This document shows positions 1 to 33,638 of a stretch of DNA of 33,638 nt, in pieces. This DNA comes from Chlamydiia bacterium (lineage in GTDB: Bacteria > Chlamydiota > Chlamydiia > Chlamydiales > SM23-39). The stretch's first letter is position 1; every line of letters begins with the position of its first letter. The DNA lies in assembly GCA_016213175.1 (NCBI GenBank), contig JACRBF010000009.1, forward strand, positions 1 to 33,638. Direction: 5' to 3'. The position numbers and the translations under genes are program-made. Under the pieces are notes generated by a model that saw only the letters and a program-made list of their open reading frames with translations, had not been told where the DNA came from and ran no database searches.

Positions 1-143
1 CCCAAAGCAAATCGATTCAAATCCTCTCAAATCGAATAAAAAAGCGAGGTTAATATTAAGTCAATATTGACCTCGACTTTTTTATTCGATTTTAGAGAGA
101 TTTCAATTCGATTTTCTTGGGTGACTTTGAGGTGGAACGGGTA
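1..143. repeat. Family A palindromic repeat, copy 1 (left end cut by window edge)
   Basis: This is an imperfect long palindrome whose centre is near 58-62. The left arm starts at the window edge with CCCAAAGCAAATCGATTC, and the right arm ends at 143 with GAGGTGGAACGGGTA. Compared with the complete copy at 8376-8540, about 22 bases are missing at the left. The right arm overlaps the 3' end of nusB (92-143). The base pair after the element is TA, as beside most other copies. No transposase is encoded, so this looks like a MITE or another non-autonomous palindromic element. Confidence 0.9.
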
Positions 144-535
144 TACACTGCGTCAAGAATGGCGTTCACAAATTGGGAACTTTCCGGAGTGCCGAATTTA
201 CGGGTCAAACGGATGGCCTCAGCAATTGCCACCTTATGAGGCAATGAAGGTTCATAGAAAAGTTCAAAGAGCCCAAGGCGCAAAGCGCACTTTTCAGCAA
301 GAGAGATACGATCGAAATGGTATTCCCTCGATGAGACACGAATCTTCTCGTCGATCTCTCCCAGCTTGTCTACCACTTGCATCGCTTTCAGACGCGCTTC
401 CATTACCGCCTTGCGAGTGACTTTAAGCTCTCCCATAAGCATGAGCGCCGTATCATCCGAACCATCCGGCACAAACTCTGTGCTAAAAAGAATTTGAAAA
501 ACAATCTCGCGAAATTTCTGTGGGGGCAATGACAT
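92..535 (-). CDS. nusB: Transcription antitermination factor NusB
   Basis: The 147-residue product matches NusB in length and layout. It is all-helical, starts with a segment like PQKFREIVFQILFSTEF, and ends with the conserved KFGTPESSQFVNAILDAV region that closes the fold. NusB binds boxA RNA together with NusE (S10) and acts in rRNA antitermination in the cytoplasm. The start is an ATG at 535. The oddity is the C-terminus: after Ala-Val-Tyr, the last 16 residues (TRSTSKSPKKIELKSL) and the stop codon are encoded by the family A repeat, replacing whatever tail the gene once had. The conserved core appears complete, so the protein is probably functional. It is followed upstream by dps on the same strand, 48 nt away. 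Confidence 0.88.
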   Translation of the reverse strand: MSLPPQKFREIVFQILFSTEFVPDGSDDTALMLMGELKVTRKAVMEARLKAMQVVDKLGEIDEKIRVSSREYHFDRISLAEKCALRLGLFELFYEPSLPHKVAIAEAIRLTRKFGTPESSQFVNAILDAVYTRSTSKSPKKIELKSL

Positions 536-1737: not shown

Positions 1738-1757
1738 ACCTCCTGCGTAATTAAGGG

Positions 1758-1883
1758 TTCGTCGCTTTTCGGAGGATTTTTGGCCGATTTTCGATTCAAA
1801 ATTGGGGGGCAATACCAACTCCAGTATATTGCCCCCCAATTTTGAATCGAAAATCGGCCAAAAATCCTCCGAAAAGCGACGAA
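1758..1883. repeat. Family B palindromic repeat, intact copy with perfect 57-bp arms
   Basis: The arms at 1758-1814 and 1827-1883 are exact reverse complements over 57 bases, separated by a 12-nt apex. The right flank continues with GAAATCCATATCGG, which is shared with the copy at 18783. The element lies between the convergent exonuclease gene (ends 1737) and cydB (ends 1906). A transcript from either side would form a very stable hairpin, so it may protect 3' ends or terminate transcription, although no clear T-tract follows. Decayed relatives lie at 11046-11149 and 18783-18871. Confidence 0.93.
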
Positions 1884-1905
1884 ATCCATATCGGTGTTTG
1901 TTCTA

Positions 1906-8373: not shown

Positions 8374-8375
8374 TA

Positions 8376-8540
8376 TACCCGTTCCACCTCAGAGGCGCCC
8401 AAAGCAAATCGATTCAAATTCTCTCAAATCGAATAAAAAATCGAGGTTAATATTAAGTCAATATTGACCTCGACTTTTTTATTCCATTTTAGAGAGATTT
8501 CAATTCGATTTTCTTGGGTGCCTTTGAGGTGGAACGGGTA
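8376..8540. repeat. Family A palindromic repeat, complete copy 2
   Basis: This 165-bp element begins TACCCGTTCCACCTCAGAGG and ends with the matching inverted sequence at 8540. The two arms pair almost throughout, with the centre near 8457 (TTAATATTAAGTCAATATTGA). It is the reference copy for defining the family. It lies between two plus-strand genes, directly after the stop codon of the SWIM-like gene. The base pair to its left is TA, while to its right a second element end begins after TC. Confidence 0.93.
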
Positions 8541-8542
8541 TC

Positions 8543-8560
8543 TACCCGTTCCACCTCAAA
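8543..8560. repeat. Extra family A terminus, head-to-head with copy 2
   Basis: TACCCGTTCCACCTCAAA at 8543-8560 is the exact reverse complement of 8523-8540, the right end of copy 2, with only TC between. The sequence after it (ATGGCGATTTTACGG) does not continue the element. It is therefore a solitary terminus, either from a second insertion mostly deleted or from an aberrant excision. Confidence 0.8.
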
Positions 8561-10583: not shown

Positions 10584-11051
10584 ATGGCCGTAAGTATCTC
10601 GAGTCATGCGATGTCGCGCCTGGGCACATGGAGAAATCCGCAAGGAATTGAAAAAGAGCCAGAAATAATAAATCGCACATGCCACACAACGATAGAATTT
10701 AATTTTGAACCAAGGTCAAAAATAAATTATCCAAAGCACATTTTGAAGGTAATTGCCACTGAAGTAGGATTAGGCGTCCTCGCTACTACGGCGATTATAG
10801 AAACGATCGCATATGCGAGCCTAACCTTTCTCTCTCTTTGCCTATTCCCAGTCACCGATAGACCCTGCAAATTCTTTGCACACCTATTACAAAGCAGCGC
10901 ATTCACCGTAATTTGGTCAGTTGCTGACTTTCTTTATTACAACTTGTTTTATATTAATATTTTAACACAAGAAAAAAATGCTCGTCTATTCGCTAGCTAT
11001 ATCCAATGCAGCCCACCAATGTCAGTAGACACTTACAACTGCGCTCACTAA
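10584..11051 (+). CDS. Hypothetical membrane protein
   Basis: The function of this 155-residue protein is not recognised. About 50 polar N-terminal residues are followed by two hydrophobic segments (about 58-89 and 101-124) and a short Cys-containing tail. A long hydrophobic hairpin like this resembles the bilobed domain of chlamydial inclusion membrane proteins, which is only a suggestion. The start is well supported by GGGAGG (10573-10578) ahead of the ATG at 10584, and an extended -10 (TGTTACAAT, 10551-10559) lies upstream. The final His codon and TAA stop lie within a family B repeat, exactly as in the unrelated gene ending at 18788. The 229-nt region before it holds no gene that I can support. 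Confidence 0.62.
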   Translation: MAVSISSHAMSRLGTWRNPQGIEKEPEIINRTCHTTIEFNFEPRSKINYPKHILKVIATEVGLGVLATTAIIETIAYASLTFLSLCLFPVTDRPCKFFAHLLQSSAFTVIWSVADFLYYNLFYINILTQEKNARLFASYIQCSPPMSVDTYNCAH

Positions 11052-11149
11052 GAGACCGTTAACGGATTTGGTTTCTATCGATTTTCGGGACCTTTTGAGC
11101 CGATTTTCGATTCAAAATTGGGGGGCAATATCAACATCCAGTATATTGC
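11046..11149. repeat. Family B palindromic repeat, copy truncated after the apex
   Basis: This copy runs from CACTAAGAGACCGTTAACGG through CCGATTTTCGATTCAAAATT and the G-run to the apex (ATCAACATCCAGTATATTGC), where it stops after only 8 nt of the right arm. The outer left arm is diverged from the copy at 1758, but the inner 40 nt are nearly identical. It lies between the convergent 155-residue membrane protein gene and rmuC and contains the stop codons of both. Confidence 0.85.
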
Positions 11150-18788: not shown

Positions 18789-18871
18789 GAGATTGTTAAC
18801 GGATATGGATTTCGTCGCTTTTCGGAGGATTTTTGGGGTTTTTTGAACAATTGCTTTAATTGGGGGGGATG
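18783..18871. repeat. Family B palindromic repeat, decayed left arm
   Basis: CACTAAGAGATTGTTAACGG starts the copy and GATTTCGTCGCTTTTCGGAG follows, matching the outer arm of the intact copy at 1758-1883 very closely to about 18837. Beyond that, a weaker match continues (AATTGGGGGGGATGA) to the apex. The right arm is reduced to a CCCCC run. The decayed inner part overlaps the inferred promoter of the M16 protease gene. Confidence 0.75.
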
Positions 18872-23582: not shown

Positions 23583-24020
23583 TCAGTGGTTGCCGACGCA
23601 GTCCATGAGCTGCAAGATCCGGTCGAGAACGATTTGCGCTTCGAATGAAGAGGTTCCTTGCTGCATCATCCGATAAAGAGTTTCTCTCTCTTCTCGAAAG
23701 AGGTCAGCTTTATTCTGGGATGACCTCTTTGAAGAATTGTTACGTAAAGATTCTTCATAGGCGTCGATTTGTCCGCGAATGAGCGCAATTTGCGCCGCGT
23801 GCATTTCATTGCTAAGTTGCTCAACTTGAACAGCAAGATTTTTCTGCTCTTTTTTTGCCATCGAGAGTTTTTTACTCAGCAAGGCAATTTTCTGCTTCTG
23901 TTTTGTGACTGGCAGATCTTGGGTTGTTATAGAAGGAGGTCCGCAAGAGACAAGACAAATACCACACAGAATCCCGATTATATACCCGTTCAACCTCAAA
24001 GGCACCCAAGAAAATCGCAT
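23583..24020 (-). CDS. Coiled-coil lipoprotein with repeat-derived N-terminus
   Basis: The 145-residue product has a type II signal peptide: a basic and aromatic N-region (MRFSWVPLRLNGY), a hydrophobic core (IIGILCGICLVS) and a lipobox Cys26 (LVSC). The mature part is a long coiled coil (about 40-95, KQKIALLSKKLSMAKKEQKN and onward), then a linker with SSKRSSQNK and a helical end. It is probably anchored to a membrane facing the periplasm. The function is not recognised. The start codon, its GAGAG ribosome site and about 13 codons come from a family A half-repeat. An in-frame TTG at 23993 would give a shorter but still workable signal peptide. It is downstream of the M50 gene, 67 nt away. Confidence 0.7.
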   Translation of the reverse strand: MRFSWVPLRLNGYIIGILCGICLVSCGPPSITTQDLPVTKQKQKIALLSKKLSMAKKEQKNLAVQVEQLSNEMHAAQIALIRGQIDAYEESLRNNSSKRSSQNKADLFREERETLYRMMQQGTSSFEAQIVLDRILQLMDCVGNH

Positions 24021-24055
24021 TGAAATCTCTCTCAAATGGAATAAAAAATCGGTTT
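23983..24055. repeat. Family A repeat, single arm (copy 3)
   Basis: TACCCGTTCAACCTCAAAGG starts the arm, and the sequence follows the family to about 24055, where it departs with GGTTTTTGACAACG. Only one arm is present, so the palindrome is lost. Along the minus strand it reads ATGCGATTTTCTTGGG, the same variant as copy 4 (ATG rather than ATT). TATA precedes it, as beside other copies. Confidence 0.85.
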
Positions 24056-24087
24056 TTGACAACGTCTTCGACTTTGTACATAGTGCA

Positions 24088-25230
24088 TCATGGGAGCGGA
24101 TCGATAAATTTACGAAACTCCGAGTCATTCTTCACAGCAGCAAAAGTCTCTTCCCGTAGAAGATTTTCTAAATCGACATGTCCCTGCTGCAAAGCCGTCT
24201 GCAACCAGCCTCCAGAAGGCTCTGGCTGCCTAAGGTAGGCAAAAGCACGGGCATTGCGCACGGCAGTCTCTACAGTAGGGGAGGCTTGATAGCTATCGCT
24301 CGCAATTTCAGCCACAAGCAGATAATTTTTCTGATTCGATGCGAGCTTGTGCAAAAGACAAAGAAAGTCCCCAGACAGGTGTCCCTTGATAGGGAGTAGG
24401 AGATCATAGGCCTCTTTATGCTTTCCTTCCTGCTCATCCAAAAACGCCAAATATTGGCTCGCGGCGACAAAGAGCAGTCCCTCAGAGACTCTGTGACGCA
24501 CCTCCTCAAAATCCCTTTTTGCCTCTGCCTTTCTTCCCTCTCTTAAGGCAGTTTCTCCCGCAATCATCAGCTCCCTATTCGCCTCGTCGCGATCACTGCG
24601 GCTGGCATATCTGCTCTTACGCCAAGAGTCAAAACTTTGAAAAGCGAAGAGAAAAAAAATAGCTCCGACCAAAAAGGCAGACTGAATCAGAAAATAGAAT
24701 GCGATCAGCGCAGCCACAATCGCACCAATGAGAAGAGAGGCTTTAAACCCCTTTAAGCCAAAGCTGGCTTCTAAGACAATACGCAAAAGCTGCCCTCCAT
24801 CGAGAGGAATCACGGGCAAGAGATTGACGATCGTCCAAAAAAGGTTAGCCATTTGGGTGGCCTTCAAGATCCCCTGAACGGTTGGCCAAGCAGATAGGTT
24901 ACACTGTAAAAGCAAGCTCGCAAAAAGAAAGAGGAAAAAACCGAACAGAGGCCCATTGAACGTGATAAGAAATTGCTGCCAGAAGCGAAGATTTTTCCCC
25001 TCGTAGGAGGTCACGCCGCCGAGTGCTACGAGTTGGATCTGGGGCTTTTGCCCGAAGAAAAGAGCAGTGAGCGCATGGCCGAATTCATGGATCAACACAG
25101 AAAAAAAAATAATTCCCACCCAAACGACTATGCCCATAAAGGAGGCTGTATAGATCCATCCGATGAAGGCAGCAAAGAGCCAGAAAAAGGGGTGAATCGT
25201 AATCGGAATACGTCCTGGAATCGTAAGCAT
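24088..25230 (-). CDS. M50 site-2-protease-like membrane metallopeptidase
   Basis: The 380-residue protein has an intramembrane protease half and a soluble C-terminal half. The zinc motif HEFGH gives His48, Glu49 and His52 inside a hydrophobic helix, and the distal metal ligand Asp144 lies in NLLPVIPLDGGQ. A conserved early His13 (TIHPFF) is also typical. Residues about 205-380 are helical and look like tetratricopeptide-type repeats, probably for substrate recognition. Such enzymes cleave membrane-spanning regulators or signal peptides. The ATG abuts the sucD stop (TAAATG), so it is translated from the sucCD transcript. An unrelated role is therefore likely to be coexpressed with the TCA enzyme. 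Confidence 0.85.
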   Translation of the reverse strand: MLTIPGRIPITIHPFFWLFAAFIGWIYTASFMGIVVWVGIIFFSVLIHEFGHALTALFFGQKPQIQLVALGGVTSYEGKNLRFWQQFLITFNGPLFGFFLFLFASLLLQCNLSAWPTVQGILKATQMANLFWTIVNLLPVIPLDGGQLLRIVLEASFGLKGFKASLLIGAIVAALIAFYFLIQSAFLVGAIFFLFAFQSFDSWRKSRYASRSDRDEANRELMIAGETALREGRKAEAKRDFEEVRHRVSEGLLFVAASQYLAFLDEQEGKHKEAYDLLLPIKGHLSGDFLCLLHKLASNQKNYLLVAEIASDSYQASPTVETAVRNARAFAYLRQPEPSGGWLQTALQQGHVDLENLLREETFAAVKNDSEFRKFIDPLP

Positions 25231-29086: not shown

Positions 29087-29250
29087 ATATCCCGAACGTG
29101 ATTCAATGGTCGGATTTAGGCTGATGTGAAAGCTCTCTCGGTTCAACAATCATAAGTTGCTCAATATTAGAAATATGAGGCAACTTACGATCGTTAAATC
29201 GAGAGGCTTTGACACAACCGAAAGCCCAATTCTTGAATCACGTTCGGTAT
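29087..29250. repeat. Third long palindrome (about 164 bp), single copy here
   Basis: The outer arms ATATCCCGAACGTGATTCAA (29087-29106) and TTGAATCACGTTCGG (29233-29247) pair. The inner arms around 29134-29160 (CTCTCGGTTCAACAATCATA) and 29177-29206 also pair, with an apex at about 29167-29171. Pairing between the outer and inner blocks is looser. The sequence differs from families A and B, so it is a separate element. It fills most of the gap between the two hypothetical genes, and its right end touches the likely start region of the next gene. Confidence 0.82.
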
Positions 29251-29256
29251 AGATCT

Positions 29257-33476: not shown

Positions 33477-33638
33477 TACCCGTTCCATCTCAAAAGTGCC
33501 CAAAGCAAATCGATTCAAATCCTCTCAAATCGAATAAAACAGCGCGGTTAATATTAAGTCAATATTGACCTCGCTTTTTTATTCGATTTTAGAGAGATTT
33601 CAATGCGATTTTCTTGGGTGCCTTTGAGGTGGAACGGG
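33477..33638. repeat. Family A palindromic repeat, copy 4 (right end at window edge)
   Basis: The element starts TACCCGTTCCATCTCAAAAG and runs to the end of the window, lacking only the final TA of the complete copy. Differences from copy 1 include AAAACAGCGCGG in place of AAAAAAGCGAGG and ATGCGATT in place of ATTCGATT, so the two window ends are distinct copies and not a simple overlap. Its left flank is TA. The plus strand contains an ATG at 33603-33605 that could start a gene beyond the window. Confidence 0.9.

What the first reader, a model, noticed from the sequence alone, without database searches (positions are those of the whole stretch)
8376..8540. Family A: a 165-bp, fully palindromic MITE-like element at gene edges
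Three near-complete copies, one half copy and one solitary end occur in 33.6 kb. Whole-element palindromy with TACCCGTTCCACCTCA ends, TA beside most copies, and no coding capacity suggest mobilisation by a transposase encoded elsewhere, with a TA target. Its density implies many copies genome-wide. Such elements are little described in chlamydiae.
Basis: partly seen in the sequence, partly recalled or inferred. Interest (0 to 1): 0.8.

Follow-up and report, generated by a model that had tools for sequence, protein, structure and literature searches.

The report
IS630-driven palindromic mini-transposon (MITE) family
The 165-base palindrome is a real, multiplied mini-transposon with no genes of its own, present in about 40 copies in this chlamydia-like genome, most probably moved by an IS630-type insertion sequence whose ends lie at the broken contig ends of the same genome; it is a new member of a known kind of bacterial mobile repeat.

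Summary
The window has the complete element (8376-8540), two copies cut by the contig ends, one half copy and one lone end. Genome-wide there are about 43 places, 24 of them complete (163-167 bp, mean 5.5% apart), plus many lone ends. Of 85 ends, 93-96% abut TA.

The genome looks transposase-free to an IS630 profile, but that is an assembly artefact: 23 ends of one IS630 element sit 67-138 nt from contig ends and encode the two termini of an IS630 transposase. Its terminal repeats follow the MITE's layout (16/26 plus the shared TA; shuffle p=6e-5). The same clade in relatives matches up to 19/26; other IS630 ends do not. In sister genus g23 an IS630 remnant and a MITE share a 22-base end.

MITE and IS use the same hot spots; 18 of 23 IS ends lie in or against another MITE. 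Empty sites exist: a paralogous one inside this window, and an orthologous one at nusB in relatives.

The element centre is a bidirectional terminator-like hairpin. Closest known: pneumococcal RUP with IS630-Spn1. New member of a known kind; transposition itself not shown.

The parts
8376..8540 (+). Complete family A element (165 bp palindromic MITE); reference copy
8374..8375 (.). TA next to the left end (target dinucleotide)
8543..8558 (+). Lone left end TACCCGTTCCACCTCA abutting the complete copy (remnant of a second, tandem copy)
8440..8480 (.). Central hairpin with A-run and T-run on either side: bidirectional intrinsic-terminator-like core
1..143 (+). Family A copy, left 22 bp missing because the contig starts inside it; right end inserted in the TA of the last conserved Tyr codon of nusB
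92..535 (-). nusB; its last 16 codons (TRSTSKSPKKIELKSL) and stop are encoded by the element
23983..24050 (+). Half copy of family A (one arm, intact outer end)
23583..24128 (-). ORF reading through the half copy; the element may supply the ATG and n-region of a lipoprotein-type signal peptide (MRFSWVPLRLNGYIIGILCGICLVSC)
   Evidence: translation; start assignment is inference
33477..33638 (+). Family A copy, end missing because the contig ends inside it
11048..11135 (+). Family C repeat carrying the empty TATA site (CATCCAGTATATTGC) that holds family A in contig C48 (L016)

Best explanation
Family A is a non-autonomous DNA transposon (MITE) of the IS630/Tc1-mariner type. A transposase of one chlamydial IS630 clade recognises the first ~28 bp of each end (layout TA-NNN-GTTCCACYTSAARGNNRCCCAA), moves the element and inserts it at a TA, which is duplicated. 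The likely helper is the multi-copy IS630 of this same genome, whose interior is missing from the assembly. Insertions survive mostly at gene ends and in other palindromic repeats, because there the element's central hairpin, with T-runs on both strands, is at worst a harmless bidirectional terminator and stop-codon supplier. Shown: copy number, constant size, TA flanks, empty sites, helper termini, end similarity, shared hot spots. Inferred: actual binding and transposition by that helper, and terminator activity.
For: About 43 copies in the genome, 24 complete at 163-167 bp, mean divergence 5.5%. TA at 93-96% of 85 outer flanks. Paralogous empty site: the window's C2 repeat CATCCAGTATATTGC against CATCCAGTATA-[A]-TATTGC. 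Orthologous empty site: nusB ends without the element in relatives, while here it is cut at the TA of ..LDAVY. Helper in the same genome: 25 hits of the IS end, 23 of them 67-138 nt from a contig end. Its left end runs into MRSLRTLPEHEKKDLEAILKRT (59% identical to the IS630 transposase N-terminus of G129) and its right end encodes GFFADKVHRLRRLLTQRINDNFQIIQLNPIQL (66%). The G129 transposase passes the NCBIfam IS630 cut-off, 197 against 100 bits, and carries DDE_3. End similarity of A to this clade: 13-19 of 26 beyond the TA; to the other IS630 groups tested: 8/26, 8/20 and 4/24. In genus g23 the transposase remnant L066 and MITE L036 share CTCGTTCCACTCCAAAGATGCC exactly. A and IS insert at the same C-loop and D-end TATA sites.
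Against: The helper IS in this genome has only 16/26 end identity to A (outer bases GTGC against CCCG), and no autonomous element with A's exact ends was found. The IS interior is not assembled, so an intact transposase in this genome is unproven. TA specificity and nesting could also arise with another IS630. Copies differ by 5.5% on average, so movement need not be ongoing.
Confidence: 0.85

Rival explanations
1. Family A is mobilised not by the IS630 found at the contig ends but by another, lost or unassembled IS630 copy whose ends are exactly TACCCGTTCCACCTCA; the present IS only shares its targets. (A variant of the best explanation: same mechanism, different helper copy.)
For: 16/26 end identity is modest, while relatives show an IS-MITE match of 22 bases in genus g23. 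L174 holds one A-like body with the IS-type end TAGTGCTTCCACTT, suggesting that ends can switch.
Against: None of the end-A sites read (about 100 listed; the non-MITE ones read) leads into a transposase; all run into A bodies or truncations.
Confidence: 0.3
2. The repeat is a functional host element (a dedicated bidirectional terminator or RNA-processing site) copied by recombination, not a transposon.
For: Strong conserved hairpin with compensatory changes (22 pairs changed on both sides against 5.9 in shuffles); T-runs after the core on both strands in 24/24 copies; excess of gene 3' ends facing it (15:5 within 30 bp, p=0.02).
Against: Precise TA duplication, nested insertion into other repeats and IS, ends homologous to an IS630 clade, and insertion inside the nusB reading frame point to transposition. 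Covariation can also come from the two arms copying each other.
Confidence: 0.05
3. Members of the Rickettsia-type palindromic elements (RPE) that insert in-frame into proteins.
For: Similar size and palindromy; a few copies contribute codons to genes (nusB, the lipoprotein-like ORF).
Against: No copy of the 30 examined lies inside an ORF that continues on both sides; copies sit at gene edges with a TA duplication and IS630-type ends.
Confidence: 0.02
4. Assembly artefact: chimeric joins at contig ends create the apparent repeat.
For: Many copies are at contig ends and the genome is an 86%-complete draft in 61 contigs.
Against: Many complete copies are internal with different sequence on both sides (e.g. 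8376-8540, C12, C25, C48, C35), and independent genomes hold relatives (JAJXYX01 contigs).
Confidence: 0.01

Closest known systems
RUP (repeat unit of pneumococcus) with IS630-Spn1
   Same: Short non-coding repeat, about 100 copies, TA target, ends similar to a resident IS630, reported tendency to sit in or near IS elements (PMC2229807; PMC3049150).
   Different: RUP is 107 bp; A is 163-167 bp, palindromic from end to end, has a bidirectional terminator-like core, and nests reciprocally with the helper IS and two other palindromic families; different phylum.
SPRITE (pneumococcal Rho-independent-terminator-like element)
   Same: Terminator-like hairpin repeat enriched at gene 3' ends (PMC3049150).
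   Different: SPRITE has no recognised IS partner; A has IS630-type ends and TA flanks.
Correia / NEMIS elements of Neisseria
   Same: Up to 156 bp between 26-bp inverted repeats (PMC3049150); TA flanks and addition of codons or stops to genes from my own knowledge and PMC2229807.
   Different: Not compared by sequence here; A is a whole-length hairpin.
IS630-type transposons of chlamydiae (compare the transposase-rich Rhabdochlamydia genomes, PMC9723776)
   Same: Transposases related to the helper are widespread in the order (44 of 148 genomes hit).
   Different: That paper describes transposases, not MITEs (no occurrence of 'MITE').

Membership tests
MITE (miniature inverted-repeat transposable element) | Short (<~600 bp), non-coding, terminal inverted repeats | tested here: met
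   163-167 bp, whole-length inverted repeat, no transposase
MITE (miniature inverted-repeat transposable element) | Multiple copies of constant size with precise boundaries | tested here: met
   24 complete copies of 163-167 bp; end motif 123 sites against 12 control
MITE (miniature inverted-repeat transposable element) | Target-site duplication and empty sites | tested here: met
   TA on 93-96% of 85 flanks; empty sites in C2 and at nusB of relatives
IS630/Tc1-mariner-type non-autonomous element | TA target dinucleotide | tested here: met
IS630/Tc1-mariner-type non-autonomous element | Ends shared with an IS630-family autonomous element | tested here: met
   Similar rather than identical in this genome: 16/26 with the resident IS (shuffle p=6e-5), up to 19/26 with clade members; 22-base identity within genus g23
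IS630/Tc1-mariner-type non-autonomous element | Helper transposase in the same genome | tested here: inconclusive
   Both termini of a multi-copy IS630 transposase are present at contig ends; interior not assembled, so an intact gene is not shown
IS630/Tc1-mariner-type non-autonomous element | Transposition by that transposase | not testable with these tools
   needs in vitro or in vivo assay
RUP | RUP sequence (107 bp) and IS630-Spn1 ends | not tested
   Sequences not aligned here; different length and phylum; the resemblance claimed is of mechanism only
Rickettsia palindromic element | In-frame insertion inside protein-coding genes | tested here: not met
   0 of 30 copies spanned by an ORF
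Rfam RNA family | Match to a known structured RNA at gathering score | tested here: not met
   No hit in the window

The most novel reading that the evidence does not exclude
The palindromic MITEs and their IS630 helper form a self-targeting landing-pad system: the TATA edges and hairpin loops of the MITEs are preferred insertion sites for both MITE and IS, and the bidirectional terminator cores insulate neighbouring genes, so that the transposon load of this reduced genome is steered into its own repeats. A 79-nt flank that continues into A in one contig and into the IS in another hints that this may still be going on in the population.
Probability: 0.25. Interest if true: 0.62.

Novelty: new member of a known kind. 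Interest (0 to 1): 0.42.

Why it matters
I found no description of IS-paired MITEs for chlamydiae in the papers searched. Here one draft genome holds at least four repeat classes (A, C, D and the IS) that nest in one another. Many contig ends fall in them, and they hide the transposase from profile searches, so transposon load in such genomes is underestimated. The pairing of two MITE families with two IS630 clades, and the shared insertion hot spots, make target choice by IS630 transposases directly testable.

Tried and rejected
PF13358 profile search of the own genome gave no hit. It was first read as 'helper absent', then overturned by the contig-end analysis. Idea of a core motif shared by all MITE families: within this genome the core lies in family A apart from one 3-mismatch site that I did not read (other sites read). 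Outside the family it recurs in D-like palindromes of G051 and G087; left as unexplained. Most matches to the A end outside the family, are a conserved coding sequence (reading DYPFHLKG by eye), not transposon ends. No match in plasmids or viral contigs, no Rfam family. The pattern scan of named genomes returned only MAG BP7.bin23, so the host could not be named. RPE-like in-frame insertion was rejected. A composite transposon (A-IS-A) could not be tested because IS interiors are unassembled.

Full report
WHAT IS THERE. The 165-bp element at 8376-8540 begins TACCCGTTCCACCTCA and ends with the inverse. It matches its own reverse complement at 85% over its whole length and folds at -97.6 kcal/mol (z -16.6). 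The window also holds copies at 1-143 and 33477-33638, both cut by the contig ends, a half copy at about 23983-24050 and a lone end at 8543-8558. Genome-wide there are about 43 places, 24 of them complete with sizes 163-167 bp and mean pairwise divergence 5.5%. Shorter internal-deletion forms exist (89 bp in L200; a ~31-bp end-to-end remnant in L193), as do many one-ended remnants. The end motif occurs at 123 sites (<=3 mismatches) against 12 for the control.

IT IS A TA-TARGET MOBILE ELEMENT. Among 85 distinct ends, the two bases outside are T and A in 93% and 96%. A paralogous empty site lies in this window: the family C repeat at 11048-11135 reads CATCCAGTATATTGC, and in contig C48 (L016) the same sequence reads CATCCAGTATA-[A]-TATTGC. 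An orthologous empty site is at nusB. Here the conserved end ..FVNAILDAVY is cut at the TA of the Tyr codon and continues TRSTSKSPKKIELKSL-stop, encoded by the element. Relatives of the same family end with their own short tails; of 20 found, 17 were read at this place, and only one (G023) has any end-like sequence near, 92 bp beyond its stop and of its own type.

THE HELPER. A profile search found no IS630 transposase in this genome. That is misleading. A second end sequence, TA|TAGTGCTTCCACTTGAGGTGCACCCAAAA, first seen beside A copies, occurs 25 times. In 23 cases the contig stops 67-138 nt further in, the mark of a collapsed multi-copy IS. The left version opens a reading frame MRSLRTLPEHEKKDLEAILKRT and the right version encodes GFFADKVHRLRRLLTQRINDNFQIIQLNPIQLG-stop. 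These are 59% and 66% identical to the two ends of an IS630-family transposase from G129, which scores 197 bits against a cut-off of 100 for NCBIfam IS630 and carries DDE_3. Nine left and 14 right ends imply about 14 copies. Its closest relatives in the order (G018, G061, G129; G147 degraded) have ends of the same layout as family A: 15-19 of 26 positions after TA (13 for the more distant G054), against 4/24, 8/20 and 8/26 for other IS630 ends. Family D, another repeat of this genome, instead matches the IS630 of G100 (18/26; 5-9 to the first clade). In genus g23 a decayed transposase C-terminus (L066) is followed by an end sharing 22 identical bases with a MITE of the same genus (L036). The resident IS itself is 16/26 to A (shuffle p=6e-5), so I cannot exclude that a lost sister IS with A's exact ends did the work.

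NESTING. A and the IS use the same places: the TATA in the loop of family C, the TATA at the ends of family D, and each other's edges. 18 of 23 IS ends lie in or against A, C or D (12, 3, 3). Even if those repeats offered 30% of tolerated sites, this has p=2e-6 (the 10% and 30% figures are my assumptions). [quoted passage not shown] One 79-nt flank continues into A in contig C24 and into the IS in contig C19. This is compatible with a polymorphic insertion in the sampled population but needs reads.

WHAT IT DOES TO GENES. None of 30 copies is spanned by an ORF of 120 aa or more. Genes face the element with their 3' ends more often than their 5' ends (15:5 within 30 bp, p=0.02; hand tally, test). 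The core CGAGGTTAATATTAAGTCAATATTGACCTCG is followed by a T-run on both strands in 24/24 complete copies, so it resembles an intrinsic terminator in both directions; the consensus scan listed only the + strand one, and activity is untested. Pairing is kept by paired changes (22 pairs changed on both sides against 5.9 in shuffles; at most 53% of cells paired when slid, against 97%). This shows that the two arms stay complementary, by selection or by copying between arms. At 23583-24128 the half copy may give the ATG and n-region of a lipoprotein-like signal peptide (inference).

DISTRIBUTION. Relatives of A occur in several other genera of the same family (G014, G018, G023, G024, G026, G028, G030; 73-84% over long matches), and A-like ends in G016, G021 and one genome of another family (G125). 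Not in plasmids or viral contigs.

VERDICT. A genuine IS630-type MITE, well supported, working like pneumococcal RUP. New member of a known kind; what stands out is the tight mutual nesting with its helper and the terminator-like core.

Noticed in passing
window 1745-1900, 11048-11135, 18799-18836: Family C: another palindromic repeat (57-bp perfect arms at 1758-1883), up to about 45 places in the genome; its loop TATA is an insertion hot spot for A and the IS.
   Followed up: partly
window 29088-29251: Family D: 164-bp palindromic, TA-flanked repeat, about 37 places; ends match a different IS630 clade (G100, 18/26).
   Followed up: partly
L129, L130, L132 (G051, G087): D-like palindromes of other families carry nearly the same AT-rich centre (AATATTAANTCAATATT) as family A although their ends differ; why a centre should be shared is unexplained.
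   Followed up: partly
L013 1-79 and L161 (contigs C24 start, C19 end): Same 79-nt flank followed by A in one contig and by the IS630 left end in the other: candidate population polymorphism.
   Followed up: partly
L003 1-176, L136 end (contigs C43 start, C61 end): A second collapsed repeat at contig ends looks, by eye, like the C-terminus of an IS30-type transposase.
   Followed up: no
window 23583-24128 (-): Half copy of A seems to supply start codon and n-region of a lipoprotein-type signal peptide.
   Followed up: no
L174 1354-1410: A-like body carrying the IS-type terminal bases TAGTGCTTCCACTT, an intermediate between MITE and IS ends.
   Followed up: no
L014, L010, L209: Family E: 40-bp palindrome TAGTGCTTTAAAATTCTATYAATAGAATTTTAAAGCACTA at TA sites, abutting A copies.
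   Followed up: no
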